Of a stretch of DNA of 64,000 bases, positions 7,939 to 64,000 are shown piece by piece. Every line of letters starts with the position of its first letter. Position 1 is the first letter of the stretch. The notes beneath the pieces were generated by a model that did no database searches, was not told the DNA's origin, and was given only the letters and a program-made list of their open reading frames with translations. The position numbers were made by a program, and so were the translations under genes. Origin of the DNA: Mycoplasmoides fastidiosum (GTDB taxonomy: Bacteria > Bacillota_I > Bacilli_A > Mycoplasmatales > Mycoplasmoidaceae); assembly GCF_024498275.1 (NCBI RefSeq), contig NZ_CP101809.1, forward strand, positions 310,001 through 374,000, given 5' to 3'.

Positions 7939-7970
7939 ATTTCTGTTTTTCAGTTTTAAAAACCAAAAGG

Positions 7971-11966: not shown

Positions 11967-11985
11967 GATTTTGCATAATTGTTTC

Positions 11986-12016
11986 ATCCGTGTTTAATCC
12001 TAGATTAAACACGGAT
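11986..12016 (+). terminator. Terminator-like hairpin after family A gene
   Basis: Perfect 14-bp stem ATCCGTGTTTAATC/GATTAAACACGGAT (11986-11999, 12003-12016) with a 3-nt loop. The T-rich tract comes a little late (12020-12042), so termination is likely but not textbook. Confidence 0.7.
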
Positions 12017-12070
12017 TAGTATTCTTGTTATTTTTTCTTTTAGTAATTTCTCCTTTTTGTATTTTTAATA

Positions 12071-15000: not shown

Positions 15001-15379
15001 TATTATTACTCTTCCCTTTGAAAACCGTTCACCAGCCCGTTCGAACCAAATTGGCTTGCCCAATGTTTATCAGCATACTTTCCGAAATTTCTCCCGAACT
15101 CAGGCGAATACTTCATTATTTCAGGTTTTAAACCAGGAACAACTAACCACCCAATTGGATTTAAGCCAACTAACTAAAGAACAAGTTTTCGCTAATCTAA
15201 ACAGTTTTATTCTACGTTCTAAAGGCTATCGTATAACTAGTGTTGATCAAATTACAGTGAGTTATTCTAAAACATTAGATGTAGTTTATATTACTTATGA
15301 TTTTAGTAACCAACGTGATTTAGAACCAGATTCACCCGTTTATTTCACTGCGGTGTATAAATTGAGTCAACCCAAGTAG
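12071..15379 (+). CDS. Family A large surface protein, intact
   Basis: 1,102 residues from ATG 12071 to TAG 15377-15379, with TGA read as Trp. The signal segment MKRFSKFWLLFALSTLVATS differs from the MSKKLSKF type, and the leader is short and unlike those of the two preceding copies. The head domain is similar (TRLSTIISDIGPVL, FQLDWFGNRVW, SYLDLRGDLFFNMATWD). The block VGKIMLINKDTGVAVAVDED to QNFRASGTGSIVNYEVL is nearly identical to the other copies. Beta modules with closing GL/GF motifs follow to the C-terminus (VYFTAVYKLSQPK). No lipobox cysteine. It is the last copy of the tandem array; surface location is inferred and function unknown. Confidence 0.85.
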
Positions 15380-39700: not shown

Positions 39701-42700
39701 CAATTCCCGATTACACCTTTGAAAACGGGATTAATTTTGCTTATCCTGAAAAACTGAAAACAACAGTTTATAAATGAACCGGTTTACCTAAAACTAATAC
39801 GACAGTGATTGGTAAAAATATTGCTGATCCAAACGGAGTCCAAACCTTTGTTGCAGATAGTTTTACAACTGCTGATAAACGCAATTTATTTAACCAAATC
39901 ATTCGCAAACCACCAAGTCAAATTACAGCAGCAGAAATCTTTCAATTAGGCGCAGTTGAAACTGATGTTGCAACTTGAAATGTAGTTAATGCCACTAATG
40001 CAGCGAATTATTTTGAATTGTTTCCCAATAATGCCAATGGTTCTTTATTGTGACAAGTGAAAATTCCGGGTGATCCAACTAACGGGATTCCCGAACAACG
40101 GATTAGTGTCTTATGAGAACACTTGTTTGATCAAAGCACCACCATTACTTGAAAACCCCAAGCAGTTTTACAAAACTTCTTTTTAGGAAAAACTCCTGAA
40201 GAAATTAAAATTGAATTTAAAACTGATCCCGAAAGATTCATTACCGTTGTTAACAAGCCAACTACTGCTAAAATCACTGCCAATGATTTGGTCTTTGCTA
40301 GTGACCAGTCGCAAAATTTTGTCATTAATGTTAACAATGGTCAAATTCGGTTCGCTAATTTACAACTGAAAAACTACTATTTAAACGGGAATAAATATAT
40401 TAACGGATTGATTGAAAATCACAGCAATAGTACTCCAACTTACCTGACGATTCCCGTGTCCCCCAACTATCAAGGCCAACGTCCAGTTGCAACAGTAACT
40501 TGAAAACCTGATGCACAAATTTTACAAGCAATTAAGGATTATTTGAAAACTAATAATTTAGTCCAAGTTGATCCAAACCATCCCGATCTAACTACAGTTG
40601 ATCAAGTGTTAGATGCCATGAATGTTTATGATTACAAACAAGCTTTAGTGAATCATAATATCAACCTAATTGACCTTGACTTATTTACTTTAGCCCACAT
40701 TAGTAAAAGTGATTACCAACAAACTGGTAATCTGAACCAAAACATTGATGTTGATAATCGTACAGGGAATCTAACTTTTAAAAACCTAAGATTCATTAAC
40801 TGGCAAAACGATAATAGTTTCACCACTACAGAACACACTTTAGCACCTAAAGTGGTTCAAGCTAATCCGGTTGTGAACAGTTTTGTTTGGGCGAATAATG
40901 TAAGTCCAGGGTTAATTAATAAAACCGTATTAGAAGTCGCAACGATTTTACAATCACCAACCCAAGCTCCAGCTTATATTGATGCTTTAAATGTGGGGGT
41001 TAAAACGTTTGATGCTAACAACATCATGCAAAATGGTTACCGAGTTGATCCCACTAAAATTGAGATTGATATCCAAAAGGGAACGGTGCGGTTTAACAGT
41101 GGTGCAGTAACCGTAACTAATTTCATTACAGCAGCAGGTCAAACAGGCAGTGATCATGTTGTGACTGAAGCAAAAACTTATAGTTTACCCAACAAACTTT
41201 CGACTAGTTATTTAGTTAACAACAACATCAGTTCACCAAACGGCTTTAAAGATGATTATGCCAACTTCTATTATGGATTTCGGTACAATGCAGCCCCAAC
41301 TACAACCGAACATAAAGCGTTAATCGATCAAGAAGTGGCTGCTTTAAATGCCCCTAATTTAGTTAACCAAACTGCAGAAGCAGGCGCAAATATTTTACGC
41401 CGGTGGTTAATCGATAATAACACAGCCCGAATTAGTCCAGTCGATCTAGCCCACATTAACAGTTTAAAAAATCAAGCAACTGATGCAACAGTTCGGGCTG
41501 CTGTCTTCAATAATTTCTTTTATGTGCCCAATTTTTTAGGGTTTGTTAATTCTCCCGTGGCATCTGGAGTGAACCGCACTTATTTGATTGCTGAACGAAT
41601 TGAAAACTCTAGTTTAGATTCAGCAATTTTAATTATTCGGAATCCGTTCATTGTTAATTATTTAAACAACGGAATAACTTCGATTCATCCAATTAGTAAC
41701 CTAATTTTCAGTGGTTTTTTACGGAATGGTACCACAATTAGGTTTCACAAATACCAAAACCAAACCGTGCCCGAACAATTAAGTAGTGGGGAATTTAGTG
41801 CCAACTTCTTACCTAATTTATGAGCTAATGCTGATGCGGCTGCAGTGAAAGCTGATTTAGATTTCTTCACAGCTAACCGGAATAATCCAACAGTAAAAAC
41901 CACTGACCGGTGACGCGATATTCAAGCGGCCTGAATTAGTACTTTTACCCCAACTAATGTCCCTTATGGTGGGGCTTATGATACAAGTGTTGTTTATCCA
42001 TTAGATATTACCATTTCTAATGGGGAACGCACTTTAAAAGTGAATAAACTCCTGTTCCCATTATTTGCAAGCACCTTAGATCGAACCAATCCAGTTCTTA
42101 GTGACTATGAAACTCCAGCTTCTGAAATTTGGTATTTAAATGCGGGAGCAAACACCCAGTTAGTTGTCAACCCAGTAGCTACTTATGAAGAATTGCTAAA
42201 CCAATCTCCGCTTGTATTATTGCAACAATTAGGTTTAGTTCCTGGAGTCCAAACTGATTCAGCTAAAGCGTTCCAACAGTTTTTAGCTTTAAAAGTTTAC
42301 TCATTATTAAATGGCGCTCATTCGGTGTTAACTAATAATGTCAATGGGACTAATTTATTAGGTCCAGTGGGCCATATTGGTAAAATTGAAATTACCAAAA
42401 GCGATTTAGTTTTAAGGGAGATCCAAATCAGCACCCCATGAATTGCGGGTCAGATTGGGGCCACTTTAACTTTTGATGATATTCATTTAAGCTTTCGCAC
42501 TTATTCAACTGAACTTTATCCGAATAACACAGTAACAATTGTGCAGTGGTTAGCAAAAACTTTTGGTGGACAAAAATCAGTGGCCGAATTATTATTTGAA
42601 TTTAGCCAAGCCATTGCTGATGGGCGGTTTGATGAAGTTGCATTTAACCAAATGCTACAACAAGGTGATGGCTTCTTCTTTATTCATTCAATCTTTAATG

Positions 42701-43314
42701 ATCCATTAACCCAAGCTCGTTTAAACCCGGCTGTGAAACTTAAAGATGCAGTTCAAATTGATGTAATAAATGGGATAGTGAGTTTTAAAGATTTACAAAT
42801 TCTCAACGGGTATTTAGATAATCTGCCCCAAAAAGACCAAATCATTAATGTACCCCCAATTCAGTTAACTGTTAGTTCTAATTTCAATACCGAATTTCGT
42901 TTTGATGTTGAACAATTACGCAGTGATCCGGATTTAATCCAATTAAAACCATCAGAAATTCAAACTTGATTACTGGCTCATCCCGAACGCTTACAAGCCT
43001 TAGTTCATTTTCCTGAAGCATCCCAACAACTAGAACAACCTGATATTAGTGTTCAAGCTAATGACATTTTGGGCCGGGTTTATATTGAACTAAGTTTCCA
43101 AAACTTTTATGAAAATGGTCAAAATTTAGGCCATAAAAACTTCACTTATACTTTAGACTCGTTAAAAAACGAACTAGGTTTAGTCCTTGGTCCAGTTTTA
43201 GGGGGCAGTGGTGCTGTTGGTTTAGCTGGTTTAGCTTATTATTTCTGAAGACGCAAACACTTGGGTGGGAAGAAGTTTTATATGGCCCAAACAATTGTGA
43301 ACGAGAAAAAATAG
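36787..43314 (+). CDS. Family B-like giant surface protein, divergent partner
   Basis: 2,175 residues, ATG 36787 to TAG 43312-43314, TGA as Trp throughout. Same plan as its neighbours but clearly divergent in sequence: membrane anchor at about 12-31 (KWLYSSLIILGLSTITTF), LRR-like segments (KLLNLNGLNLTEIDAILNP, IDLSNNHFG, DVASNNIREIPKYFLKINL with LNISNNKLG at about 220-250), then roughly 1,800 residues of beta modules such as NGQIRFANLQLKNYYLNG and TGNLTFKNLRFINW. The C-terminal helix LGLVLGPVLGGSGAVGLAGLAYYFW near 2129 is followed by RRKH and a basic tail. It is the only copy of this type in the window and forms an operon with the 29840 gene, so the pair may work as one complex. Function unknown; a surface role is inferred from topology. 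Confidence 0.82.
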
Positions 43315-43610: not shown

Positions 43611-43691
43611 CTTTGTGACATTAACTTCTCTTTTTTTGTTTTTTAAGGTTACAAGTCGTTATCGTTTTTTATTTATCATCTGCATTTATTT

Positions 43692-46600
43692 ATGAATCGA
43701 AAATTCAAAAAAATGCTGTTGGGATTCGCTGATCAATACCGCTTTTCTTTATCAGCGAATTGATTAATTAGTTTCGCTACTCTAACATCTAGCATTACTG
43801 CTTTTGTTAGCTCTGCTTATTGAGTCGAGCAAGCATACCAAGCTCAGTTAGCAGCTGAGCAATTTGACCCAGTGCAGGCTCGGGTTGCTCGTATTACTCA
43901 GTCTGGTCAAGCAACTGTGCCGGGGGGGGGGTCATCTACCACTAATCCAGCCGTAGATACTGATTTAAGCGGGTTTTTAGGTCGCGATTTAGCTGACATT
44001 GAAAATATCATTATTGAAAATGATTCTAAAGCCATTTCGTTTCGTGGCGATTTACCTAAAACCGGCATTCGGGCGGTGGCAACTAATGTTAGTTTGACCA
44101 AAAGTGGTCAAACAATCACTGCTAACGCTTATGATTATGTCAATCTAAAATACGTTCAATACAACAAAAAAACAAAAGCTGTAACTAATGTTAAATTTGC
44201 TCCACCACCAGGTTTGTTTAATTTGAACGAAGCACAAAATAACTGACCCACACTTGCAGAAACTGATAACCAGTTATCTAATTTTTTTCCAACCCGGGGA
44301 ATTCGCAGTGCAGTTGCCACTATTTTAGGGAAAAGTCCAACTGATACTTTTACTAAAGCAGAATGATTTAATGCTTTTGATAAAACCAATATTACCCTTG
44401 ATTTATCGAACCGCGCATTAAGTTCCATTGCTGAAATTTTTAACCCCAACCTGCGTTGGGGTTTGGGGATTTATGATTTATTAGGCACGGCTAATTTTCA
44501 ACCTTTAGAAGGTAGTAATGTTAATTTAGAAATTCGTTACACGGGCTTAAGTACATTAATTGTTGATGACAACATTTTGACTCATTTTCCCAATCCGAAT
44601 TACAAAAATTTTCCGGCCTTAAAAACAATTCGGGCCAGTAAAAACGCCATCCAAGCAATTGGAAATTTCAATACTTTTAGCAATAATCATTACTCTACTG
44701 AATACCAGAGTGATACTGATTTGCAAGCGACTTCATCACCCGCTAAGAGTTCAGAAAATTACTACCAATACTTAATGAGTTTATGGGCTGAAAGTTCAGA
44801 TGTTAAAGACTTACAATCTGTTAAAGGAATTAAGAAGTGATTAACAACTACTTTACCTAGTGTTAATTATGCAGGAAGTAGCAATAGTTCAGTGAGTAAA
44901 TCTGGTGCTAAAACTATTACTGATTATGCTAGTTTTTTAGATGCAGTTTCAGCCGATCCGTTTTATTTTAAAACAAGGGATGGTGATAAATATGTCAATC
45001 AAAAAAGTCCCAATACTTCCAACAATAATAACAATGGAATGACTGCTACAAGTGATAGTGTTATTCCCCATGATCCTAACAGTAACATCACCACTAATGC
45101 CAACGGTACTATTGTTGCAACCCATCGAGCTAGTACCAACACTGATGTCACTTTAGATAAAGGGATCAATTTTGGGGGAGTAAAACTAGATCTTTCCAAA
45201 GATATTTACCGACTTGATTTTTCTAACAACCAAATTGAACGCATTCCGTTATCTAAAAACATGTTTACTAATGTTGATTTTAGTAATAATCGGTTACGCT
45301 ACATCACCCCAATTGCGGCTAAACCTTTACCATGATTTTATGGTTTGATTTACATAATTGCTAATTTCGATTCAACTGCTTACAACTTATTGAATCCAAC
45401 TAAATGAACTAATTATTACAATCAAGAAAATGACAATAAACCAAATGGTTTTGATAAAGGCAATGACACGCGGGCGTTTGACAGTTTCCGACTTGGTAAT
45501 GCAACATACACCCTGCCAACTTTTTCTTTTTATGGTAATCAATTACTAGATTTCTGACCCCAACAAGATACGGATAGTAGTTGATACACTTGACCGAAAA
45601 TAACAATTCCTAATTCCAAACGAATTGGGAACACTGGAGCAACTGTTAACTCTAATGTTAATGGTTATCCAATTAGTCCGTGAAACCGACAAATTGGTGG
45701 TACTACTGAATTTTATCCCTGATTTCACAAAGTTTGAATTGGACCTAATGACGGGGAACGTTTATTTGCTACTTATTTAGGGGTTTTTGATGGTAATTTC
45801 ATTCATAATATTGTGCCATCAAGTATTTCAACGCGTGCTAGTGGTAATAATTTATACGGTATTTTCTTTAACCAGCTAAACGATAATAAAATTTTGACTT
45901 ATCTGCAAAGTTATAGTAAGACAATTAATTACAATGTAACCTTAGCTAAAAACAACAGCAACGAAAAGTTTATTTTACCTGGGTTTAATACTACGGAATT
46001 AAAGCAAATTGGAACAACAAATTCGCCAACTACAAGTTCTAGTTCTGGAAGTGATATGAATCCAGAACGAAAAGCTTTTGCTGATGATATTTTAAGTACG
46101 AGTTCAGATGCTTACAAATCTTATAATTCCCAAGTCCCTTACATCTTAACCCGCACCTTACCCCAAAACCATTCGGTTACTAATTCTTGAGGCAGACAAG
46201 ACGGGCGAACCGGAACCGGCCAAAAAATTAATGTGCAATTAATCAACCAAAACAAGGAAGATGTAGCTGATGCTAACTTTAAAAACATTGATTGGGTTAG
46301 TTTGTATGCTAATGCAAATGGCTTACAAAATAATTTGGCTTTTCAAGAACTGAATGGTAGTTATCAACCATCAGCAAGTAATGGTTTGCCTACTACCACT
46401 CCTCAAGGACAAACTGCAATAACCAATAATGGCTATAAATTTCTAACTGAAGTTTTAGGGCAATTGCCTTATTACAATGGTCGGAAAAATGCTTCTCAAT
46501 GAACTGGTGCAACAGGAAATAAATCAACCGGTTTAGACTTAACCCAGTTTGCCACTATTACTGGTGAAAATGCGGTACCACTTTCACCATCATATAACTT

Positions 46601-49600
46601 AATTATTTCCGCACCTAATCAAGAATGAACTTATCGGTACACCATTAATGTGTTAACTGATACTAGTTATGTTTTAAATCCAAAAGATGCAAATGCAAGT
46701 GATAGTGCCAGAAGATATGATGTTTCTTCTAATGTCAATTTTCCTCACCGGTTTAAGTTTGCTTCAACCGTTACCACAACTGATTTAGCCAATAATATTG
46801 ACCAGTGAACTTCTGGGACAGCATACATTCAAAACTACATTCGTAATGACGCTAAATCATTGATCATTAAAAGGGTTGATTTAATCAATAACGAAATTGT
46901 AGTTGGTTTCAATGTGAATGATCCAAACAATAATAAAATTGCAATTAACGATATTACATTAACTGGTTTTGCCACTCAACAAGCATTTTTAATTAATAAC
47001 GATAAACAAATTAATTCCTTTGATGATCAAGATAATGCTCCAAATGAATTTGCGCCTAAAAATCGTGAAGCAGCAATTACTTGAATTAAAAATCACGTAG
47101 GAATTCGGTGAATTGGTTTGACTAAAACAGATAATAGTTTAACCACTAATCTGAGTACGACTGCTACTAGTGGCAGTTTAAGTAGGCAAAACATTTATAA
47201 ATTAAATGAATTAAGCAATCCAGAAAATTATATTAGCAGTGTCTTCTTTAACAAAAATGATGGAACTTTATCATTTACCCTCCAAGTGAATGCTAACGCA
47301 AGTAATGGGGGAATTAACTTAGTTGAAAATCACACTATTACCACTTTTAAAAAATTCACTTATTCAATTGATACTTCAACAGCAGCAAAAAACTTAAGTG
47401 CATCAGAATACACTGATGAAAAATTAAAAACATTCGTTACTCTAAAAACTTTTCAAACCATTGGTGGTCAAGAAATGAATGCTTCATCCAAAGTTTGACC
47501 AACAGATGAAAGTGAATTAAAACAATTCTTACCCCCAGAAACCCAATTAACATTAACCGATATTAACCGGAATGCTGAAGTCGGCAGTGTTGATTTTGCA
47601 GTTAGTTTATTTGAAAAAAATGCTGATGGCACTAATGGTGATTTAATTGATGTAAAAACAGCCAGTTTTTTTGGTTTATCCAATTTCAATTCTGCATTTA
47701 ATTGAAAACAAAACAATGATCGAATATCGGGGATTGCTTTCATTACCCATAGTGAATATCAAAATAAACCAGTAGCTGAATTTAAAAAAGCACTAGTAGA
47801 AAGTGTTATGAATGCAACTAAATTTAATGAATTAATTCTGCCATTATTAGATTTAACTGCAAGTGCACCAACTTTTGATACTAATAATAATTTATCAGGT
47901 GCCTCATCACTAACTGAAGAACAGAAAAAACAATTAATGATTGGGTTTCATGGCACAACTAGTTTAAGTGCTGCAGATGTTAATACCAATGTTACAACTA
48001 GAGATGATGCGAATTTAGTTGGCATTAACTTTTTAACAATTAAAGGGGGTTATTTACACGGTAAATTTTATGCCGGATCTGAAGCTGGCGCACCGGTTAA
48101 TAATTTACCATCATTATTAGTGGCTTTAAAACCAAATACAACCCAAAATCAAGCGATCAATAATACTTATAAAACATCTGCTAGTCCAACAACTACTACC
48201 CCAAGTGCTCAACCAAATTCGGGTTATACTGGTGGGAATAATTTATTCCATGATGCATTAAGTCGGGAATGAAAAGATTTATTACCCAGTGAGTGATTAG
48301 CCCAACTAAGAACTTTAAAAAACCGCCAAGCCAGCCAATTAATCAGTCAAGTTAACTACCAGAAATATGATACTCTCACTGGCTTTTTAAATCATGTTTT
48401 AACAACTTCTACTTCGAATACTAGTTATCAAACCCATGTTGATATTAATAACTTCAGTGGGATTGAAATTAATAATTCCACGGGTGAAGTGAAAATTGCG
48501 GCTAACACTTTAGTTATTCATAATGTTTATAATGATATGACTAAAGCTGAGCGCAGCTTAACTCCCCAACCTTATGCCCAGGAAATTAGTTTCTTTTTAA
48601 GCAACTACTTCTTCCGGATTGATGCAAAAACTAAAGAACAATTACCATTTGCTGATAATGAGGCCGTGAATCGTACTTTTGCTAATGAAAGTGTGTTAGG
48701 GATCATTAACCAATTAGATGATTTATTAACCAAAGCTCAAAAACTTTACAATAATTCGATAACTTTATCTGGGGCTGATTTATTAGCTGCTGAAGATGCG
48801 ATTAACATTTTAAAATTCAAATTCATCAACCCGATTTATTACACTAACCCCGATGCCGAACGTTTCTTTACCACCCAATTTAGAACCCAAGACGTGGCAT
48901 CAACTTATGTAAATCAAATGACTAAATTCACTAAATTAGACATTAGTAATCCTGATTATAATGGGGGTAGTTTAAATGTTACAGTCACTGTGGAAAATTA
49001 CATTGAAGGATTTGATGGAACTCATTTCACTTTAAAAAACAAAACAACTACTTTTCAAATTACTAATACTTTAGGAGTATTTTTATTACCCAACTGAAAC
49101 AACTTTAGTGAAAGTAATTTAAAAATTCGTACCGATGATCCAACCCTAACTAGTTTAGATGGCGAACAAAGTACGGGTACAGTAACTAATAACCAATTCC
49201 AAACTTGATCAGTTAAAGATTATTATGATCAACTGATGACTAAAACTAATCCCAATAATGCAGACTACATCACATTAAATAATTCTGATCCGTTATTTGA
49301 TTTAGTGACTTGACGTTTGGTCGATAACACCGGAATTGAAATTAATAACCAGAATTCAAAATACCAAGAAGCTTTTCAAATTTTGAAAAGCCAGTTGAAT
49401 CCGTTTGCACCAACATTTAATGTACGAAAACAAGATGTTTATTACAGTGCGAAGAATGAACAAATTTATTTACTTAACCCCTTCTTACATTTCAATGTAG
49501 TCGATGCTAATCAACGACAAATCGAAATTTTAAAAAATATTTTTGACCCAAATAAAACCACTGAAGAACTAATTGATAATTTCAATAATTATCAAACCGT

Positions 49601-50579
49601 CGGTTTGGGCAATGTGATCTTACAAGGGTTTAAACGCCAAACCATTGTGATTCAGCCCCAAGATTACAATCAGGATAATTATCAACTAAATTTAAATGGT
49701 ACTTTGGTAGCAGTAAACCAACTTTCAGGTGCAGATATTTTAGGCTGATTAAAAACTAACTTAAATGAACCAGCCGCAATTAATACGTTTTTACAATCCT
49801 TCTTACAAGTTCAAGGTTTTTCCCGCCCAACTAATCCCCTATCTTTAGTTTTAAACCCCCAATTTGCTCAATTGTTAGCTGTGGATACTCCCGTGGAACA
49901 ATTGACTGATTACATCCTAATTAATGATGGTTTGGGTGAATTAACTTTTTTAACCAATAGTATTCAATTAGTCAATAGTTATCAAACTAATCTTGATGAT
50001 GTTAATCCTCACCCAGTTAATTTAACAACCTTTTTAGCTGATCCTAACCAAGCAGAGATTAAGTTGACCAAACTAAAATTAGTTAATTCTCAAGTCCTAA
50101 CTGAATCAACTGAACAAATTACAAATGATTTAGTTCGTCAAGGTTTTCAAGCTAATATTCGCGACGTAACCAAAGCTTTAGAAAATGATGATTTTTCTTT
50201 AGCCTATCGGTATTTACAATTGGGCCAAATTTTAGTGAGCGATGATAACCAACAACAATTAATTATTCGTCAAATCCATTCGGATTTAGTGAATAACCGA
50301 ATCGTTATTGATTATGAAATTAAAAATGCGTTTGTCAATGGTCGCATTCAGAATTTACAAAACCAATTAATTTTGACGGGGTTTAATTCTAATTCCCAAC
50401 TATTCTTAAAAATCCATTTACCATGAATTATGGTTTTACTAGTTGTTTTAACTATGGGAATCTATTATGGCATCTGACGTTATCGTCATGCAACTAATAG
50501 CATTAAATTCATGCAAAAAACAACTCACCAATCCCGTTCACGAACGACTAAATTACAGAACAATAAAACCAAAAAATAG
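43692..50579 (+). CDS. Family B giant LRR surface protein (copy 2), phase ON
   Basis: 2,295 residues, ATG 43692 to TAG 50577-50579, uninterrupted with TGA as Trp. Basic start MNRKFKKMLLGFADQYRF, anchor helix at about 24-44, then residues 77-80 (PGGG) encoded by the G10 tract at 43922-43931, here in frame. LRR-like parts: LDLSNRALSSIAEIF (~237), FPALKTIRASKNAIQAIGNF (~305), and LDFSNNQIERIPLSKNMFTN with VDFSNNRLRYITP (~505-540). Many beta modules follow, e.g. VGSVDFAVSLF, NSTGEVKIAANTLVIHN, GSLNVTVTVENYIEGFDGTH and NRIVIDYEIKNAFVNGR, then the helix LPWIMVLLVVLTMGIYYGIW near 2243 and a basic tail. Transcribed singly behind a long leader. Topology fits a cell-surface protein anchored at both ends; ligand unknown. 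Confidence 0.87.
43922..43931 (+). repeat. Poly-G tract, G10 (ON frame)
   Basis: Ten consecutive G's inside the coding region, codons CCG GGG GGG GGG TCA, just after the membrane anchor. G tracts this long are rare in such an AT-rich genome and are classic slippage sites. Confidence 0.9.
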
Positions 50580-50745
50580 GCACCAGTTGGGGTTTTAAAC
50601 TCAAATCTAAATAATCTTTTCGAAATCATTATGCTTAATTATGACTAAGACGCAAAGAGGTTGTTATGTCGGGTTCTTGTTATATCCAAGCTGGATTATT
50701 GCTTCAAACCCCGCAGCATATTTCCAAAAAGCACAAATTGGAATA

Positions 50746-50754
50746 TGATAAAAT
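50746..50754 (+). promoter_or_regulatory. Extended -10 promoter of family B copy 3
   Basis: TGA-TAAAAT (TAAAAT at 50749-50754) within AATATGATAAAATC, identical in core to that of copy 4. It predicts a leader of about 165 bases. An upstream block TTCTTGTTATATCCAA (near 50674) is shared with copy 4 and largely with copy 2. Confidence 0.6.
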
Positions 50755-50786
50755 CAAGCTAACTTATAGATATTTTTTATCTCATC

Positions 50787-50926
50787 ATTAAATTGTTGTA
50801 ACTCTGTTTAATGACAATCTGTTCAATTATGAAATTGAACAGATTGTTTGTCTCATTAATTTTTTTGTTTTTCGATCTTTGAAGTTACAAGTTGTTATTG
50901 TTCATATTTATCACTTGTTTTTCTTC
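50787..50926 (+). repeat. Direct leader repeat, unit 1 (copy 3)
   Basis: About 140 bases before the copy 3 ATG, from around AAATTGTTGTAACTCTG, recur almost letter for letter before copy 4 at 58005-58143, including the 15-bp hairpin and the GTTACAAGTTGTTATTG block. The match continues into the start of the coding sequence. Confidence 0.85.
50814..50847 (+). promoter_or_regulatory. Leader stem-loop, copy 3
   Basis: Perfect 15-bp stem ACAATCTGTTCAATT (50814-50828) with 50833-50847, loop ATGA, 79 bases before the ATG. The T-rich stretch after it is delayed, so an attenuator or a protein or RNA binding element is as likely as a terminator of the upstream gene. Confidence 0.65.
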
Positions 50927-53900
50927 ATGAATCCAAAATTCAAAAAGATCTTATTTGGATCTACTGATAAATATCGATTTTCTGCACCAACAAATTGGTT
51001 AATTAGTTTTGCAATCCTACTTTCTAGTACTACTGCATTTATCAGCTCAGCTTATTTAGTTCACCAAGAACACCAAGCTCAACAAGCAGCTGAGCAAATT
51101 GATCCTGTTCAAGATCGGTTAGCCCGAATTACCCAGTCAGGCCAAGTAAATGCGCCGGGGGGGGGGTCATCTGCTACTAATTCCGCAGATGACACAAATT
51201 TAAACGCGTTTTTAGGCCGTGATTTAGCGGACATTGAAAACATTATTATTGAAGACACCAATCGGGTAATTTCTTATCAAGGAGATTTACCGAAAACTGG
51301 AATTCGGGTTGTAGCAACATCTGTTAGTTTGACTAAAGGATCAGTCACAATTAGCGCTAATGCTTATGATTATGTCAATTTAAAATACGTTCAGTACAAC
51401 AAGAAAACTAAAGCTGTAACTGATGTTAAATTTGCCCCACCACCAGGTTTATTCAATTTAGACGAAACAAAAAATAATTGACCCACACTTGCAGAAACTG
51501 ATAATCAACTAGTTGATTTTTTCCCAACTCGGGCAATTCGTGCTGCAGTTGCAACTATTTTAGGTAAGGAAGTAACTGACACTTTTTCTAAAACGGAATG
51601 ATTTGATGCATTTGATAAAACAAGTGTCACCCTTGATTTATCGAATCGAGCCCTAACTTCTATTGCTGAAATTTTTAATCCAAACCTGCGTTGGGGTTTG
51701 GGAATTTATGATTTATTAGGCACAGCTAATTCCTCTGCTCGGATTACTGGTAATGGAAATTTTGAAATTCGTTATCAGGGTTTGAGCACCATTAATGTGG
51801 AAGATAATATCATTACCCATTTTCCCAATCCCAACTACAAGAATTTTCCAGCATTAAAAACGATTCGCGCAAGTCGTAATGCGATTCAAGCAATTGGTAA
51901 CTTTAACACTTTTAGCAATAATCACTACTCTACTGAATACCAAAGTGAGAGCGATTTACAAAGTACTTCAACAGTTACAAAAAAACCAGAAAACTATTAT
52001 GAATATTTAAAAAGTTTATGAGCAACAGGTTCGGGTGTTGAAGATTTACCATCTGTCAAAGGAATTAAGAAGTGGCTAGAAACCACTTTATCTGGCATTA
52101 GTTATGCAAATTCCAATGCAAGCTCAGTAAATAAAACGGGTAATAAAACTATTACTGATTATGCTAGTTTTTTAGATGCAGTTTCAGCCGATCCAGTTTA
52201 CTTTAAAACAAGAGATGGTGACAAATATATCAATCAACAAAATCCTTCTACCTCAAACAAAAATAATAATGGTTTGTCTGCTGGAGATGATGGTGTTGTG
52301 CCTTATGATCCAAAAAGTAACATCACAACAACCAACGATGGTACACCAGTTAACACAAGCAGCAGTGCAAATTTTAATTTAGATAAAGGCATCAACTTTG
52401 GTGGAGTTAAATTAGATATTTGTAAAGATATTTATCGCATCGATTTTTCGAACAACCAAATTGAACGGATTCCGTTATCGAAAAACATGTTTACCAATGT
52501 TGATTTTGGTAATAACCGGTTGCGTTATATTACCCCAATTGCTGCCAAGCCATTGCCATGGTTTCAAGGTTTGATTTTTTTCATTGCCAATCTTAATTCG
52601 GCTTTTTATAACGTAGTAAATCCAAGTAATTGAAGTAAGTATTATAGTCAAGAGAACGAAACTCAACCTAGTGGTTGAAATGCTCAAACTCAAAGTGTAT
52701 TAGATTCGTTGAGAATGGGTAATTATAATTTTACTTTACCCACTTTTTCATTTTATGGCAACCAATTATTAGATTTCTGACCCCAGCAAGATACAGATAG
52801 TAGTTGGTATACGTGACCGAAATTAACGATTCCAACAGAAAAACGAATTAAAGGTGAAGGTGCAACCGTTAATTCGAATGTTAATGGGTATCCGGTTGGT
52901 CCTTGAAATCGGCAAATTGGTAATGATTCAGCTGAATTTTATCCATGATTTCACCGAGTATGAATTGGAACCCAAAATTCAGGAACTTTTTCCACTTATT
53001 TAGGTAATTTTGACGGAAATTTCATTCACAATATTGCTGCTAACGATAATATTCGTGCTCGATCTTCTAATTTATATTCCATTTTTTCAATCAATTTAAC
53101 GATAATAAAATTCTAACTTTTTCACAAAGTTATAGCAAAACAATTAACTACAATGTCACAGTAGCTCAAACTCATTCAATGCAAAATTTTGTTCTACCAG
53201 GTTTTGAAACAACAGAATTAAAACAAATTGGAACCACCGATTCAACCAGTTCTTCAACTTCTTCTTCCCAAACCGCAAGAACCTCTGAACCTGAACGAAA
53301 AATGTTTGCTGACAATGTTTTAGATCCAAATTCTGATGCTTACAAATCTTATAATTCCCAAGTCCCTTACATCTTAACTCGGACTCTACCCCAAAATCAT
53401 TCAGTTACTAATTCTTGAGGGAAACGAGATGGTCGAGTTGGTCCAGAACAATTAATTAGTGTTCAACTTCTAAATCAAAATAACGAGGATGTAACTAAAG
53501 CAGAATTTAAGGGCATTGACTGGGTAAGTTTGTACGCAAATGCGAATGGTTTAAATAATGATTTAGCATTTCAAGAATTGAGCGCTGATTATCAGCCATC
53601 AACAACAAATGGTGTGCCAGCATCTCCAGCTGGAGTCTCATCGCCTGCTAATAACAATGGTAATAAACTTTTAACTGAAGTTTTAGGTCAGCTCCCATAT
53701 TTCAATGGTCGCAAAAACGCCAAAGCATGAACTGGTAGAACGGGAAATAAAGCAGAGGGATTAGAGTTTAATCAGTTTGCTATTGCTACTGGAACAAATG
53801 TTGTGCCAATTTCACCATCTTATAATTTAATTATTTCTGCACCAGTTCAAGAATGAGTTTATCGTTACACCATTAATGTATTAACCGATACTAGTTATGT

Positions 53901-56900
53901 ACTAAATCCCAAAGATGCAATGGGAAAAGAGAGAACATTTGATGTTTCTAAAAATACAAGTTTTACTAATCGTTTCAAATTTGCATCAAGCATTACAGTA
54001 ACTGATTTATCAAATAATATTGAACAGTGAACTTCAGGCACTGCTTACATTCAAAACTACATTAAAAATGATTCGAGTTCAATTCGGATTAAATCAGTTG
54101 ATTTAATTAAAAACCAAATTGTGGTTGGTTTTGATGTTAAAGATCCAAACAATAATAAACTTGAAATTGCGGATATCACTTTAACTGGATTTCCCAACCA
54201 AAGAGCTTTTTTGATTAGTAACGACAAACAAGTTGACTCATTTAATGACAAAACAAACGCTCCAACAACCTTTGCTCCTAAAGATCGTGAAGCTGCGATT
54301 AATTGAATTAAAGAACATGTTGGCGTGCGCTGAATTGGGCTAACTAAAACCGATAATAGTTCAACTACTGATCTTGTTACTACTGCTGGCAGTAATGGTT
54401 TAGGAAGTGAAAATATTTATAAGTTAAGCGAACTAAAAGATCCTGAAAACTACATTAGTGGCTTATTCTTTGATCAAAATGATGGGACATTATCATTCAC
54501 ATTACAAATTAATGCTAATGCGGTAAATGGGGGCATTAATTTAGTCGAAAATCATACCATTATCACATTTAAAAAATTCACTTATTCAGTTAATACCACA
54601 TCAGTTGAAAAAAATTTAAGTGCATTAGATTATACTGATGACAAATTAAAAGAATTTGTGACCCTAAAAACCTTTCAAACTATTAATGGGCGCGAAGAAA
54701 ATTCTAAATCCAAAAAATGATCAGATGCAACTAATGAACTAAATGATTTTGTACCACCAGAAACTGAATTAGCATTAACTGATATTAACCGCAATCCTGA
54801 AGTGGGAAGTGTTGATTTTGCAGTGACATTATTTAACAAAAAAACTGATCAAACCCGCGGCAGTGTGATTGCGGTTAAACCGGGTAGTTTTTTTGAACTA
54901 TCAAATTTTAATTCCGTTTTTGGATGAAAACAAAATAATGATCGCACTTCAGGAATTGCTTTTATTGATTATAGTGCTTATAAAGATCAACCAATTGCTG
55001 CATTTAAACAAGCTTTAAAAGATGCCAAAGATCAAATGGCTTTTAGCCAGTTGTTAACTCCGTTATTAGACTTGACTAAAGCTGGACCAACTTTTGATTC
55101 CACGACTAAAAAATTAAGTGGTAGTAGCACATTAGAAACTAATAAACAAAACCAATTAACAATTGGTTTTGGAGCAAATGTCACAGCAACTGCGAGTGAA
55201 ATTGATACTTATATTACAACTAAAGATGATGCTAATTTATTAGCTATTAACGGTTTGATCATTAAGGGTGGATATTTAAATGGTAAATTCTACCAGGGAA
55301 CCGCAGCGAATGCGCCCATCACTCGTTTACCCAATTTATTAGTGGCTTTAAAACCCAATACGACTCAAATTCAAGTCATTGATAACAGTTATAAAACACC
55401 AGCTAATCCGCCTGCAACTAATCCCCAATCAAGCTCAGGTTATACTGGGGGAAATCAGTTATTTCATGATGCACTAAATCGTGAATGAAAAGATTTATTA
55501 CCAAGTGAGTGATTAGCAGAATTAAGACGGTTGAAAAACCGTCAAGCCAGTCAGTTAATCAGTCAAGTTGATTATCAAAAATATGACACATTAACTGGGT
55601 TTTTAAACCATATTCTAACGGCTTCAACTTCGAATACCAGTTATCAAACTCACGTTGATATTAACAACTTCAGCGGAATTGAAATTAATAATTCCACTGG
55701 GGAAGTGAAAATTGGTGCCAATACTTTAATCATTCATAATATTTATAGTAATGCAACTAAAGCTGAGCGCACTTTAATTCCCCAAGTGCACAATCAACCA
55801 ATTAGTTTCTTTTTAAGCAATTACTTCTTCCGGATTGATGAAACAACTAAAAAAACAACTACCATTTGCGGATAAAACAGCAGTCAACCGCACGTTTGCG
55901 AATGAAAGTGTGTTAGGGATTATTAATCAACTAGATGATTTATTGCAGAAAGCCCATCGCTTTTATAATGCTTCAACAACTTTAACTGGAGTTGATTTAT
56001 TAGCGGCTCAAGATGCCATTAACATTTTAAAATTCAAATTTATTCACCCGATTTACTACACCAATCCGGATGCGGAACGTTTCTTTACTGAGAAGTTTAC
56101 TGATCAAGATGTCGATAAGAACCATGTTGGTCAAATGACTAAATTTAGTAAATTAGAATTTAGCGAGACCGATTATAATGCGGGAACCTTGACGGTCACA
56201 GTCACCATAGATAATTACATTGAAGGATTTGATGGAACTCATTTCACAGTTAAAAACAAGACAGCAACATTTCAAATTACTAATGCACTAGGGGTGTTCT
56301 TATTACCGAACTGAAAAGAATTTACTGAAAGCAATTTAAGAATTCGTACCGATGATCCCAAACTAACGGCTTTAGATGGACAACAAAGTACAGGCACAGT
56401 AACTAATAACCAATTCCAAACTTGATCAGTGAAAGCATATTATGATCAATTAATGACCCAAAGAAATCCTAATAATGATGAATACATCACACTAAACAAT
56501 ACTGACCCATTATTTGATTTAGTGACTTGACGTTTAGTGGATGATACTGGGATTGAAATTAATAATCAAAACCCCAAATACAGTGAAGCATTTGGTATTT
56601 TACAAAGTCAATTAAACCAATTTGCCTGAACTTTTAACATTCGTAAAACGGATTTATATTACAGTGCAAAAAACGAACAAATTTATTTATTTAATCCGTT
56701 TTTACACTTTAACATCCGACATGCAAACACCCAACAAATTGAGATCTTAAAAAATATTTTTGATCTTAACAAAAATACTGCAGAACTAATTGATAATCAA
56801 GGTAATTACCAAAACGTTGGTTTGGGTAATGTGATTTTACAAGGCTTTAAACGACAACCAATTTTGATTCGTCCTCAAGATTATGATCAAGAAAATTACC

Positions 56901-57796
56901 AGTTGAATTTCAATGGGAATTTAATGAGTGTAAACCAAGTTTCAGGTGGGGACATTTTAGAGTGATTAAAAACTAATTTAAATGAACCAGCCGCAATCAA
57001 TACTTTCTTACAATCCTTCTTACAAGTGCAAGGTTTTTCCCGACCTGATAACCCGTTATCTTTAGTATTAAATCCCCAATTTGCTCAATTGTTAGAAACT
57101 GATACTCCAGTGGAACAATTAATTGATTACATCCTGATTAATGATGGGTTCGGGGAATTAACCTTCTTGACTGATAGTATTCAATTAGTCAATAGTTATC
57201 AAACTAATCTGGATGATGTTAATCCTCATCCTGTCAGTTTGACAGCTTTTTTAACTAATCCAAATCAAGCCACAATTAAATTAACTCAACTAAAATTAGT
57301 GAATTCTCACGTATTAGCCGAAGCTACTGAAAAAATTACGACTAATTTAGTTCATGAAGGCATTCAAGATAATATTCGCGATGTAACTAAAGCTTTAGAA
57401 GATGATGATTTTTCTTTAGCTTATCGGTATTTACAATTAAACCAAGTATTAACTAGTGAGACTGATCAACAAGAATTAGTGATTCACCAAATCCAATCGG
57501 ATTTAGTGAATAATCAAATCCTTATTGATTATGAAATCAAAAATGCATTTGTGAATGGTCAAGTGCGTAATTTACAAAGTCAATTAGTTTTAACGGGGTT
57601 TAATTCTAATTCTCAAGTTTTTTTAAAAACCCATTTACCATGAGTATTAGTGCTATTAACTGTTATCACAGCCGGAATTTATTATGCAGTTTGGCGTCAC
57701 CGTTATACCACTAACAGCATTAAATACATGCAAAAAACTGCTCATCAATCCCGGTTACCAAAAACTAAAACGGGTCGTGATAAAACAAAAAAATAA
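50927..57796 (+). pseudogene. Family B giant LRR surface protein (copy 3), frameshifted twice
   Basis: Spans 6,870 bases from ATG 50927 to TAA 57794-57796 and would code for about 2,290 residues. Anchor helix at about 24-45 and the G10 tract (51157-51166) are in frame, so the copy is ON at poly-G. The frame then breaks at a T6 run (53082-53087) where copy 4 has T7; TAA at 53114-53116 ends a 729-residue product that keeps anchor and LRR-like segments (LDLSNRALTSIAEIF, IDFSNNQIERIPL, NNRLRYITP). Homology continues one frame over from about 53088 and breaks again at an A7 run near 55849-55855 where six A's would restore the paralogue frame (TKKQLPFADK). The C-terminal helix and basic tail are present. 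Either genuine decay, further slippage sites, or homopolymer miscalls. Closest relative is copy 4. Confidence 0.82.
51157..51166 (+). repeat. Poly-G tract, G10 (ON frame)
   Basis: Ten G's in codons GCG CCG GGG GGG GGG TCA, at the same codon position as in copies 2 and 4. Confidence 0.9.
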
Positions 57797-57960
57797 GAAC
57801 AGGAGGTTTTTAAATTTCAATTTAAATAATTTTTTAGAAGTCATGAAACAGAGTTATTAGTCATACACAAAGAATTTGCTATGTTGGATTCTTGTTATAT
57901 CCAAGTGGGATTATTAGGTAAAACTCAACATTAGATTTTCAAAAGTGGTAAATTTGAATA

Positions 57961-57969
57961 TGATAAAAT
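57961..57969 (+). promoter_or_regulatory. Extended -10 promoter of family B copy 4
   Basis: TGA-TAAAAT (TAAAAT at 57964-57969) in AATATGATAAAATC, matching copy 3. Leader of about 165-170 bases predicted. Confidence 0.6.
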
Positions 57970-58004
57970 CAGGTTAACATATTAAATATTTTTTTTATCC
58001 TATC

Positions 58005-58143
58005 ATCAAATTGTTGTAACTCTGTTTAATGACAATCTGTTCAATTATGAAATTGAACAGATTGTTTGTCTCATTAATTTTTTTGTTTTTCGATCTTTGA
58101 AGTTACAAGTTGTTATTGTTCATATTTATCACTTGTTTTTTTC
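58005..58143 (+). repeat. Direct leader repeat, unit 2 (copy 4)
   Basis: Near-identical partner of 50787-50926; only a few bases differ, such as a short indel in the TTCTTC/TTTTTC just before the ATG. Confidence 0.85.
58032..58065 (+). promoter_or_regulatory. Leader stem-loop, copy 4
   Basis: Same perfect 15-bp hairpin as copy 3 (arms 58032-58046 and 58051-58065, loop ATGA), 78 bases before the ATG. Confidence 0.65.
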
Positions 58144-61100
58144 ATGAATTCAAAATTCAAAAAAATCCTGTTTGGATCTTCTGATAAATATCGATTTTTT
58201 TGACCAACAAAATGGTTAATTAGTTTTGCAATCTTAGTTTCTAGTACTACTACGTTTATCAGCTCAGTTTATCTAGTACATCAAGAACATCAAGCTCAAC
58301 AGGCTGCTGAACAATTTGATCCAGTTCAAGAACGAATTGCTCGGATTAGCCAATCTGGTTTAACAACTACGTCGGGGGGGGGTCATCTACTACTGATTCA
58401 ACCGATGACACAAATTTAAGTGCGTTTTTAGGTCGTGATTTAGCTGACATTGAAAATATCATTATCGAAGATACCAATAAGGTAATTTCTTATCAGGGGG
58501 ATTTACCTAAAACCGGCATTCGGGTTGTTGCAACATCTGTTAGTTTGACCAAATCAGGACAAGCAGCAATCACAGCTAATGCTTATGATTATGTCAATCT
58601 AAAATACGTTCAGTATAACAAAAAGACTAAAGCTGTTACTGATATTAAATTTGCTCCGCCACCAGGCTTATTCAACTTAGACGAAACAAAAAATAATTGA
58701 CCTACACTTGCAGCAACTGCTAATAAACTAGTTGATTTTTTTCCAACTCGAGCAATTCGTGCTGCGGTTGCTAGTCTTTTAGGTAAAGCAGCAACTGACA
58801 CTTTTTCGAAAGAAGAATGATTTAATGCCTTTGATAAAACAAATATAACCCTTGATTTATCAAACCGTGCTTTGAATTCTATTGCTGAAATTTTTAACCC
58901 AAATCTGCGTTGAGGTTTGGGTATATATGATTTGTTAGGAACAGCTAATTCTGCTTCTCGTATTACTGGTAATGGTAATTTTGAAATTCGTTATCAAGGT
59001 TTGAGTACCATTAATGTTGAAGACAACATTATTACTCATTTTCCCAATCCTAACTACAAAAATTTTCCGGCTTTAAAAACGATTCGAGCAAGTCGTAATG
59101 CAATTCAAGCAATTGGAAATTTTAATACCTTTAGTAATAATCATTATTCAACTGAATACCGAACAGATAGTGAATTACAGAGTAGTTCAACAACTACAAA
59201 GAATAATGAAGACTATTATGAATATTTAAAAAGTTTATGAGCATCGGGTTCAGATGTTAAAGATTTAAGATCTGTTAAAGGAATTAAGAAGTGGTTAGAA
59301 ACTACTTTATCTAGTATCAGTTATGCAACCTTAACTGCAAGTTCAGTAAATAAAACTGGTAAAAAAACTATTACTGATTATGCTAGTTTTTTAGATGCAG
59401 TCTCAGCCGATCCAGTTTATTTTAAAACAAGAGATGGCGAAAAATATATCAATCAACAAAATCCGTCTACTTCAAACAAAAATAATAATGACTTGTCTGC
59501 TGGAAATGATGACGTTATTCCTCATGATCCAAAAAGTAACATCACAACAACAAATGATGGCATACCAGTTCACACAAGCAGCAATACAAATTTTAATTTA
59601 GATAAAGGCATTAATTTTGGTGGAGTACGTTTAGATATTTCTAAAGATATTTATCGCATTGATTTTTCTAATAACCAAATTGAACGAATTCCGTTGTCTA
59701 AAAACATGTTTACTAATGTTGATTTTGGTAATAATCGATTGCGGTATATTACTCCAATTGCTGCCAAGCCATTACCATGATTTCAAGGATTAATTTTTTT
59801 CATTGCTAATTTTAATTCAGAATTTTATAATGTGGTAAATCCTAGTAATTGGAGCAAATATTATAACCAAAGTGATGAAAATCGACCAACTGGTTGAAAT
59901 GCCCAAAAACAAAGTGTGTTAGACTCATTAAAAATGGGTAATTATAATTTTGCTCTACCTACTTTTTCATTTTATGGTAATCAATTATTAGATTTCTGGC
60001 CACAACAAGATACAAACAGTAGTTGGTATACTTGACCCAAATTAACCATTCCAGCAGAGAAACGCATTAAAGGTGAAGGCGCAACTGTTAATTCTAATGT
60101 TAATGGATATCCGGTTGATCCTTGAAATCGCCAAATTGGAAATGATTCAGCTGAATTTTATCCATGATTTCACCGGGTATGAATTGGAACCCAAAATGGA
60201 GGAACTTTTTCCACTTATTTAGGTAATTTTGACGGAAATTTCATTCACAATATTGCTGCTAACGATAATATTCGTAGTAGATCTAGTAATTTATATTCGA
60301 TTTTTTTCAATCAATTTAACGATAATAAAATTCTAACTTTCTCACAAAGTTACACCAAAACCATCAACTATAACGTAACAGTTGCTAAAACTCATTCCAT
60401 GCAAAATTTTATTTTGCCAGGTTTTGAAACAACAGAATTGAAACAGATTGGAACAACAGATTCAACAGCCACAACTAGTAGTCAAGGTAGTGGCAACGGA
60501 ACGGATAGTGAACCTGATCGTAAAAAATTTGATGATGAAATTTTAAAAACTTCATCTGATGCATACAAATCCTATAACTCCCAAGTCCCTTACATCTTAA
60601 CTCGGACTCTACCCCAAAATCATTCAGTTACTAATTCTTGAGGGAAACGAGATGGTCGAGTTGGTCCAGAACAATTAATTAGTGTTCAACTTTTAAATCA
60701 AAATAACGAAGATGTAACTAAAGCAAATTTTAAAGGGATTGATTGGGTAAGTTTGTATGCGAATGCGAACGGACTCCAAAATAATTTAGCATTTCAAGAT
60801 TTACCAGATGATTATTCACCATCAGAAAATAATGGTGTGCCAGCATCTCCAGAAGGAGTCTCATCGCCTGCTAATAACAACGGTACTAAATTCCTAACTG
60901 AAGTTTTAGGTCAACTTCCGTATTTTAATGGACGTAAAAAGGCTAAGGCTTGAAATGGTGCAACAGGTAATAAAGCAACCGGATTAGAATTTACTCAGTT
61001 TGCCACTGATAATGTAACAAACGTTATACCAAATTCACCATCTTACAATTTGATCATTTCTGCACCAGTTCAGGAATGGACTTATCGTTACACCATTAAT

Positions 61101-64000
61101 GTGTTAACTGATACTAGTTATGTGCTGAATCCTAAAAATGCGAAAGGAAAAGAAAGAACATTTGATGTTTCTAAAGATTCAAGTTTTACTAACCGTTTTA
61201 AATTTGCATCCAGTATTACAACAACTGAATTATCCAATAATATTGAACAATGAACTGCAGGAACAGCTTACATTCAAAACTACATTAAAAACGATTCTAG
61301 TTCAATTCGGATTAAATCAGTTGATTTAATTAACAACCAAATTGTGGTGGAATTTAATGTTAAAGATCCAAACAATAATAAAATTGATATTCAAGATATT
61401 ACTTTAACTGGGTTCCCCAACCAAAGAGCTTTTTTAATTAATAATGGTAAACAAGTTGATTCATTTAGTGATAAAACAAACGCTCCAACAACCTTTGCTC
61501 CTAAAGATCGTAATGAAGCAATCGATTGAATTAAAGAACATGTTGCTGTGCGTTGAATTGGGTTAACTAAAAAGGATAATAGTTTAACTACTGATCTTGT
61601 TACCACTGCTACTGGTAGCAGTGGTTTAGGCAGTAAAAATATTTATAAATTAAGCGAACTAAAAGATCCCGAAAATTATATTAGTGGTTTATTTTTTGAT
61701 AAAAATGATGGCACCTTATCATTTACATTACAAATTAATGCTAATGCGGTAAATGGGGGCATTAATTTAGTTGAAAACCACACCATTACCACTTTTAAAA
61801 AATTCACATATTCAGTTAACACCACATCAGCTGATAAAAATTTAAGTGCATTAGATTACACTGATGAAAAATTAAAAGAATTTGTGACTCTAAAAACCTT
61901 TCAAACGATTAATAATCAAGAAACAAATTCCCAGTCCAAAAAATGATCTGAAGCAGTAACTGAAAATAAATTGAATGATTTTTTACCGCCTGAAACTGAA
62001 TTAGCATTAACCGATGTTAACCGTAATGCTGAAGTGGGGAGTGTTGATTTTGCAGTAACATTATTTAACCAAAATAGTAATCAGACTCGGGGTAGTGTGA
62101 TTGCGGTTAAACCTGCTAGTTTTTTTGAACTGTCGAATTTTAATTCAGTTTTCGAATGGAAACAAAATAATGATCGCACTTCAGGAATTGCTTTTATCAC
62201 TTATGATGCTTACAAAGATCAACCAATTACTGCGTTTAAAAAAGCTTTAAAAGATGCTAAAGATCAAATAGCTTTTGGTCAATTGTTAACTCCATTATTA
62301 GACTTGACTAAAGCTGGACCAACTTTTGATTCTAGTACTAAAAAACTAAATGGTAGTAGCACATTAGACATGAATAAACAAAACCAATTAACAATTGGTT
62401 TTGGAACAAATGTCACAGCAACTGCAAAGGACATTGATGCTCATATCACAACTAAAGATGATGCTAATTTATTAGCTATCAATGGTTTGGTTATTAAGGG
62501 TGGGTACTTAAATGGTAAATTTTATCAGGGAACTGAAGCAGATGCTCCCATCACTCGTTTATCAAATTTATTAGTAGCATTCAAACCCAATACAACCCAA
62601 ATTCAAGTCATTAATAACAGTTATAAAACATCAGCTAGCCCAGTTGCAACTAATACTCAATCAAGTCCAGGTTACATTGGTGGAGGAAAATTATTTCATG
62701 ATGCTTTAGATAAACAATGAAAAGATTTATTACCAAGTGAGTGATTAGCTGAATTAAGAAGACTCAAAAATCGTCAAGCCAGTCAATTAATTAGTCAGGT
62801 TGATTATCAAAAATATGACACACTAACTGGATTTTTAAATCATATTCTTACCACCTCAACTTCGAATACCAGTTATCAAACTTATGTTGATATTAATAAC
62901 TTTAGTGGCATTGAAATTAATAATTCTACTGGTGAAGTAAAAATTGGTCCTAATACTTTAATCATTCACAACATTTATAAGAATTCAACTAAAGCTGAAC
63001 GAACTTTAATTCCTCAAGTTCATGACCAAGCAATTAGTTTTTTCTTAAGTAATTATTTCTTCCGAATTGATGCAGCAACCAAACAACAATTACCATTTGC
63101 TGACAAAGCAGTGATCAATCGTACTTTTGCGAATGAAAGTGTTTTAGGCATTATTAATCAGTTAGATGATTTATTGAAAAAAGCTCAGCGTTTTTATAAT
63201 AATCCCACTGGTTTAACTGGAGTTGATTTATTAGCAGCTGAAGATGCAATTAATATTTTGAAGTTCAAATTTATTCATCCGATTTATTATACTAATCCGG
63301 ATGCAGAACGTTTCTTTACTGAAAAATTTAGTGCTCAAGATGTGGAAAATACATATGTTGGGCAAATGACCAAATTCAGTAAATTAGAATTTAGTGACAC
63401 TGATTATAATGCGGGGACTGTGACCGTCACAGTAACTGTAGATAATTACATTGAAGGATTTGATGGCACTCATTTTACGATTAAAGACAAAACAGCAACA
63501 TTTCAAATCAGTAATGCATTAGGCGTATTTTTATTGCCAAACTGGAAAAAATTTACTGAAAGTAATTTAAGAATTCGCACGGATGATCCGAAATTAACTG
63601 ATTTAGACGGGCAACAAACTACAGGTACAATAACCAATAATCAATTTCAAACTTGATCAGTGAAAGAGTATTATGATCAATTATTAGCACGAACAAATCT
63701 CAATAACGAAGAATACATCACATTAAATAATACTGATCCGTTATTTGATCTAGTTACTTGAGGTTTGGTTGATGATACAGGGATTGAAATTAATAACGGA
63801 AATCCAAAGTATGCTGAAGCTTTTAACATTTTGCAAGGTCAATTAAACCAATTTGCCTGAACTTTTAATCTTCGAAAAACCGATTTATATTACAGTGAGA
63901 AAAACGAACAGATTTATCTTTTTAATCCGTTTTTACATTTCAACATCCTACATGCAAACACCCAACAAATTGAGATCTTAAAAAATATTTTTGATTTGAA
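58144..64000 (+). CDS. Family B giant LRR surface protein (copy 4), phase OFF, 3' end outside window
   Basis: ATG 58144, anchor helix at about 24-45 (W read from TGA), then the poly-G tract at 58374-58382, which has only nine G's. In this frame the protein ends at TAA 58417-58419 after 91 residues. Adding one G puts the ORF into the frame used by the G10 copies. From there the frame stays open to the window edge, about 1,870 codons without any TAA or TAG, with all landmarks present: LDLSNRALNSIAEIF, ALKTIRASRNAIQAIGNF, IDFSNNQIERIPLSKNMFTN, GSVDFAVTLF, NSTGEVKIGPNTLIIHN and NAGTVTVTVTVDNYIEGFDG. The preserved downstream frame argues for a reversible OFF state rather than decay. The T7 run at 60301-60307 is intact here. 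Nearest relative is copy 3. Surface function is inferred. Confidence 0.83.
58374..58382 (+). repeat. Poly-G tract, G9 (OFF frame)
   Basis: Nine G's in TCG GGG GGG GGT; one G fewer than in copies 2 and 3, shifting the frame by -1 and leading to TAA at 58417. Confidence 0.9.

What the first reader, a model, noticed from the sequence alone, without database searches (positions are those of the whole stretch)
43692..64000. Poly-G ON/OFF switches at the same codon in three tandem giant LRR surface genes
Copies 2, 3 and 4 of family B carry a G10, G10 and G9 run directly after the membrane anchor. G10 keeps the frame (PGGGSS); G9 ends translation after 91 residues, yet about 1,870 codons downstream stay open, which is hard to explain if the gene were simply dead. 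Known biology: slipped-strand mispairing at homopolymers switches surface genes in many mycoplasmas, often at poly-A or dinucleotide repeats. A coordinated intragenic poly-G set in ~2,300-residue double-anchored LRR proteins is, to my knowledge, not a described system. With independent switching, the three loci could give up to eight expression patterns.
Basis: partly seen in the sequence, partly recalled or inferred. Interest (0 to 1): 0.92.

Follow-up and report, generated by a model that had tools for sequence, protein, structure and literature searches.

The report
Poly-G switched giant surface gene array
A mycoplasma carries a 145-kb row of giant cell-surface genes, most with a slippery run of G's at the same early spot, so each gene can probably be turned on or off by gaining or losing one letter; the switch type is known, but its scale and this protein family are new.

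Summary
The runs exist as stated (G10, G10, G9 at 43922, 51157, 58374). They are three of 14 such runs, all on one strand, in 14 family B genes or remnants within a 145-kb array (12% of the 1.22-Mb chromosome); in 10 of 14 the run starts exactly 230 nt after the ATG. Eight family B genes have no break other than poly-G: five read through (G10, G10, G9, G9, G8), three are OFF, by -1 or +1. OFF bodies tested have no stops and dN/dS (0.16-0.25) like ON copies. Best explained by reversible slipped-strand phase variation. G10 is in frame only for some copies, LRR character is weak, coordination is unsupported. Intragenic poly-G switching is already described in Mycoplasma (M. bovis P68, M. agalactiae gsmA). 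New here: the giant protein family (absent from 319 other genomes of the order), the scale, an upstream element at every switchable copy, and an always-intact downstream partner gene, C. Unrelated poly-G arrays occur in other genera of the bacterial family. No second strain or reads were available, so slippage itself is inferred.

The parts
43692..50579 (+). Family B copy 2 (B2), 2295 aa, ON
   Evidence: Uninterrupted ORF under TGA=W; basic N-terminus plus hydrophobic stretch near residues 24-43 (read from the sequence), C-terminal TM near 2237 (hydropathy)
43922..43931 (+). G10 tract, in frame (PGGGSS), 230 nt after the ATG
43648..43662 (+). Upstream element GTTACAAGTYRTYAT of B2
   Evidence: Found upstream of all 14 tract-bearing copies; elsewhere only two 1-mismatch hits
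50927..57796 (+). Family B copy 3 (B3): tract in frame, body broken into three frames
   Evidence: ORFs 50879-53116, 53179-55875, 55835-57796; single-base indels near 53085 and 55850
51157..51166 (+). G10 tract of B3, in frame
50884..50898 (+). Upstream element of B3
53082..53087 (+). B3 -1 frameshift in a short T run (approximate position)
   Evidence: alignment with B2, B4, B5
55849..55855 (+). B3 +1 frameshift in an A7 run
   Evidence: alignment with B2, B4, B5
58144..64000 (+). Family B copy 4 (B4), OFF: 91-aa product; body open in the other frame to chromosome 375027 (1,027 bp past the window end)
   Evidence: dN/dS 0.16-0.25 and no stops in 2,214 codons
58374..58382 (+). G9 tract of B4, out of frame by -1
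58102..58116 (+). Upstream element of B4
29816..36769 (+). Family B copy 1 (B1), 2317 aa, no G tract, no upstream element
36787..43314 (+). Family C copy 1 (C1), 2175 aa, starts 17 nt after B1; no tract
   Evidence: ten homologues in the genome, all intact

Best explanation
The array is a set of phase-variable contingency genes. Each family B gene encodes a roughly 2,300-residue membrane-anchored surface protein whose reading frame passes through an 8-10 nt poly-G tract about 77 codons from the start, just after the N-terminal anchor, in a Gly-rich linker that tolerates length change. Gain or loss of one G by slipped-strand mispairing during replication shifts the frame: ON gives the giant protein, OFF gives an anchor peptide of roughly 80-100 residues. 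Each copy switches on its own, so a population shows a changing set of B proteins, probably to vary surface antigens or adhesion. SHOWN: tract, homologous position, in-frame and +1/-1 states among paralogues, intact and selected OFF bodies. INFERRED: that length changes within a clone, that slippage is the cause, surface exposure, and the biological role.
For: 14 tract-bearing B genes or remnants on one strand between 353.9 and 477.5 kb, tract exactly 230 nt after the ATG in 10 of 14. About 0.27 runs of G9 or longer expected by chance in the whole genome. GGG is 15% of Gly codons, so three in a row is about 0.3% per gene by codon choice, yet copies diverged at dS about 0.7-1.2 keep a pure G run. 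Of eight copies interrupted only at poly-G, B2, B5, B7, B8 and B14 are ON; B4 and B9 are OFF by -1 and B6 is OFF by +1. OFF copies B4 and B6 have no stops in about 2,215 codons each; dN/dS 0.16-0.25 equals ON-ON pairs (0.18-0.25), and lineage-specific syn/nonsyn counts match ON sisters. Remnants B11r and B13r are near-identical around the tract but differ by one G, G9 versus G10. Other genera of the family have unrelated tandem arrays with poly-G just after or inside the signal anchor and mixed ON/OFF states. Precedents: PMC2824730, PMC12103780.
Against: No second strain or reads; the order-wide search finds the family only in this genome, so variation within one locus over time is not seen. 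Several copies also carry lesions outside poly-G tracts (B3, B12) or are internal-deletion remnants (B10r, B11r, B13r, B15r), so the array also decays. Two copies (B1, B16) have no tract.
Confidence: 0.82

Rival explanations
1. The out-of-frame tracts are sequencing or assembly length errors at G9-G10 homopolymers; the genes are all ON and the tract is just a Gly linker.
For: Long G runs are the hardest sequence for most platforms; the assembly method is unknown here.
Against: Deviations go both ways (B4 and B9 need one more G, B6 and B12 one fewer). 205 A/T runs of 6 or more in 17 family A and C genes show no broken gene, so small indel errors are rare, although those genes have no G9-G10 runs. 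Even if lengths were miscalled, the pure-G tract kept in 14 diverged copies still needs an explanation.
Confidence: 0.1
2. OFF copies are ordinary pseudogenes that broke recently; the array is a decaying tandem duplication.
For: B3 and B12 have frameshifts outside poly-G tracts and four copies are internal-deletion remnants.
Against: In B4, B6 and B9 the only breaks are at poly-G (B9 has two tracts, both out of frame). OFF bodies B4 and B6 evolve like ON bodies. All ten C genes and eight A genes are intact.
Confidence: 0.07
3. The poly-G run is a transcriptional or ribosomal slippage site, so out-of-frame copies still make some full-length protein constitutively.
For: The M. agalactiae P48-like protein was detected although its G10 is out of frame, and ribosomal shifting was raised there as an option (PMC2824730).
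Against: In-frame copies of different lengths (G8, G9, G10) would gain nothing from a programmed site. Not testable here; could coexist with DNA slippage.
Confidence: 0.06

Closest known systems
M. bovis P68 / M. agalactiae P48-like lipoprotein poly-G switch (PMC2824730)
   Same: Poly-G of 8-10 near the 5' end of a surface protein gene; one length in frame, others truncate
   Different: Single lipoprotein genes; here 14 copies of an unrelated family about 2,300 aa long in one array
M. agalactiae gsmA poly(G) phase variation (PMC12103780)
   Same: ON/OFF switching by change in the length of a poly(G) tract within the gene
   Different: A capsule synthase, one gene; here structural surface proteins in an array
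M. agalactiae spma locus (PMC2824730)
   Same: Multigene surface family with a poly-G tract at each gene
   Different: Tract lies in the 5' untranslated region there; here inside the coding sequence after the anchor
Poly-G tandem arrays in other genera of this family (genomes G023, G040, G043; found here, literature not located)
   Same: N-terminal anchor, then poly-G, then body; tandem paralogues with mixed ON/OFF states
   Different: Unrelated short proteins (about 110-370 aa); tract at codon 10-45

Membership tests
Slipped-strand (homopolymer) phase-variable contingency locus | Homopolymer of 8 or more in the coding sequence with other lengths truncating the protein | tested here: met
Slipped-strand (homopolymer) phase-variable contingency locus | OFF alleles keep an intact, selected downstream frame | tested here: met
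   No stops, dN/dS 0.16-0.25 for B4 and B6
Slipped-strand (homopolymer) phase-variable contingency locus | Tract length differs between otherwise near-identical alleles | tested here: inconclusive
   Shown between paralogues (B11r G9 versus B13r G10), not between strains or clones
Slipped-strand (homopolymer) phase-variable contingency locus | Reversible high-frequency switching in a clone | not testable with these tools
   Needs reads or culture
LRR surface proteins (DUF285/BspA-like) | Significant LRR or DUF285 domain match | tested here: not met
   Only LRR_4 at E 0.9, below cut-off; no DUF285 hit; motif excess modest
Vpma-type site-specific inversion systems | Silent genes brought to one promoter by inversion | tested here: not met
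   All array copies are on one strand, each tract-bearing copy with its own upstream element; a recombinase was not searched for

The most novel reading that the evidence does not exclude
B and C form a two-gene unit for a giant two-subunit surface assembly in which only B is switched: every C gene (10 of 10 intact) follows directly on a B gene or a B remnant that keeps B's upstream element, anchor and G tract, so C may depend on the B promoter while B subunits are swapped by poly-G slippage and, over longer time, reshuffled between copies.
Probability: 0.3. Interest if true: 0.75.

Novelty: new variant of a known kind. Interest (0 to 1): 0.6.

Why it matters
It would be a very large single-mechanism phase-variable surface repertoire for a minimal bacterium (array about 12% of the chromosome). 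The shared tract position and upstream element give a natural replicate set for measuring slippage rate and selection. The unrelated poly-G arrays in sister genera suggest that poly-G switching at or after the anchor is a recurrent design in this bacterial family; no description of that was found in the papers searched.

Tried and rejected
Relatives of family B: none in GTDB contigs by pattern scan, IMG/VR or 319 other genomes of the order by HMM. Structure: AlphaFold model of residues 78-760 failed (pLDDT 32), so no fold search was run; no PDB relatives by sequence. B versus C homology: hhalign weak (E 0.027, probability 1.8%). 'Coordinated' switching rejected: states differ copy by copy. The G9 run at chromosome 911363 (minus strand) lies in no clear long ORF and is treated as unrelated.

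Full report
OBSERVATION. The three runs are present exactly where stated and are the only G runs of 8 or more in the window. The genome uses TGA as Trp (long intact ORFs only under code 4). Copy 2 is one 2295-codon frame through G10. Copy 4 with G9 ends after 91 residues, and its body continues in another frame to chromosome position 375027. Copy 3 is in frame at its G10 but is broken further on: ORFs end at 53116, 55875 and 57796, because of a -1 in a short T run and a +1 in an A7 run relative to copies 2, 4 and 5.

THE ARRAY. The window is chromosome 310001-374000 of a 1,221,951-bp contig. Family B continues downstream: B2-B15r lie at 353.7-477.5 kb, with B1 before them and B16 alone at 777-784 kb on the other strand. 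They alternate, in part, with family C, about 2,200 aa, ten copies, all intact. B1 to C9 spans 339.8-484.5 kb, 11.8% of the contig. Fourteen B genes or remnants carry a G8-G10 run; B1 and B16 do not. The tract begins exactly 230 nt after the ATG in 10 of 14; the others are at 231 (B6), 227 (B14) and 218 (B11r, B13r) (positions).

STATES. ON at the tract: B2 G10, B3 G10 (other lesions), B5 G10, B7 G9, B8 G9, B14 G8, B11r G9 (fragment). OFF needing one more G: B4 G9, B9 G9. OFF needing one fewer: B6 G10, B12 G9 (plus another -1 lesion), B13r G10 (fragment). B10r and B15r are degenerate. B9 has a second internal G9 at 426859, also out of frame; B8 has G7 in frame at the matching place. So eight genes (B2, B4, B5, B6, B7, B8, B9, B14) have no interruption apart from poly-G tracts; five are ON.

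SELECTION. Over the ~2,215 codons after the tract, B4 and B6 contain no stop. Pairwise dN/dS involving B4 or B6 is 0.164-0.247, ON-ON pairs 0.18-0.25, at dS about 0.7-1.2 among tract-bearing copies. Sister-lineage counts do not differ: B4 versus B5 with B2 as outgroup, 182 syn/54 nonsyn against 183/49. A gene dead since its divergence would not look like this. GGG is 14.9% of Gly codons in B bodies, so the pure-G run is kept as nucleotides, not only as Gly residues. Chance gives about 0.27 runs of G9 or more in the genome.

ERROR CONTROL. Nine C and eight A genes contain 205 A/T runs of 6 or more and none is broken, so indel errors are rare in ordinary homopolymers. This does not test G9-G10 runs, but errors there would not by themselves explain shifts in both directions plus retention of the tract.

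CIS ELEMENT. GTTACAAGTYRTYAT occurs about 40 nt before the ATG of all 14 tract-bearing copies (13 exact, one with one mismatch); the only other hits are two one-mismatch sites near 1.18 Mb; the reversed control gave one. A mirrored GTTGTAACT lies further upstream in most copies. It may be a promoter or operator; this is inference. All ten C genes follow directly on a B gene or remnant, and the four remnants keep element, ATG, anchor and tract, which suggests, but does not show, that C relies on the B promoter.

MOSAICS. The nearest relative changes along the gene (B6 is closest to B5 over much of the first ~900 codons, then to B8 or B7; B7 is 92% identical to B14 at codons 750-900), so segments have probably been exchanged between copies.

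PROTEIN. Pfam gives no accepted domain. LRR-like motifs are in modest excess in B2 (12 against 5.8 expected, p 0.02) but not in B1. Calling these LRR proteins is not secure.

RELATIVES. No family B homologue in 319 other genomes of the order. Yet 61 of 94 other genomes of the family have a G9 or longer run, and in G023, G040 and G043 these sit at codons 10-45 of unrelated short-protein arrays with mixed states (the frame calls there are automatic and some contigs are draft).

PRIOR WORK. Coding poly-G switching is described for M. bovis P68 (G9 in frame, 8-10 among strains), proposed for the M. agalactiae P48-like protein, with poly-G in the 5' UTR of each spma gene (PMC2824730), and reported for gsmA (PMC12103780). 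The mechanism is therefore known in mycoplasmas; scale, protein family and the B-C layout were not found in the literature searched (only open-licence papers are held).

VERDICT. Observation confirmed, interpretation partly supported, new variant of a known kind.

Noticed in passing
window 43648-43662, 50884-50898, 58102-58116 and 11 further places in the genome: GTTACAAGTYRTYAT about 40 nt before the ATG of every tract-bearing B gene, almost nowhere else; mirrored GTTGTAACT further upstream.
   Followed up: partly
L068 (G023), L069 (G040), L074 and L075 (G043): Other genera of the bacterial family carry tandem arrays of short unrelated proteins with G8-G10 just after or inside the signal anchor, ON and OFF mixed.
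   Followed up: partly
window 4263-4277 (A15) and 29404-29419 (A16): Long poly-A runs 347 nt before a family A gene and about 400 nt before B1; possible promoter-length switches.
   Followed up: no
chromosome 426859 (L011) and 412972 (L008): Second internal poly-G site in B9 (G9, out of frame) with an in-frame G7 in B8.
   Followed up: partly
chromosome 293150-325379, including window 4624-15379: Tandem family A, about 1,100 aa, all intact; the one copy scanned (window 4624) matches the Lipoprotein_17 domain (PF04200).
   Followed up: no
family B array: Nearest paralogue changes along the gene, a sign of past segment exchange.
   Followed up: partly
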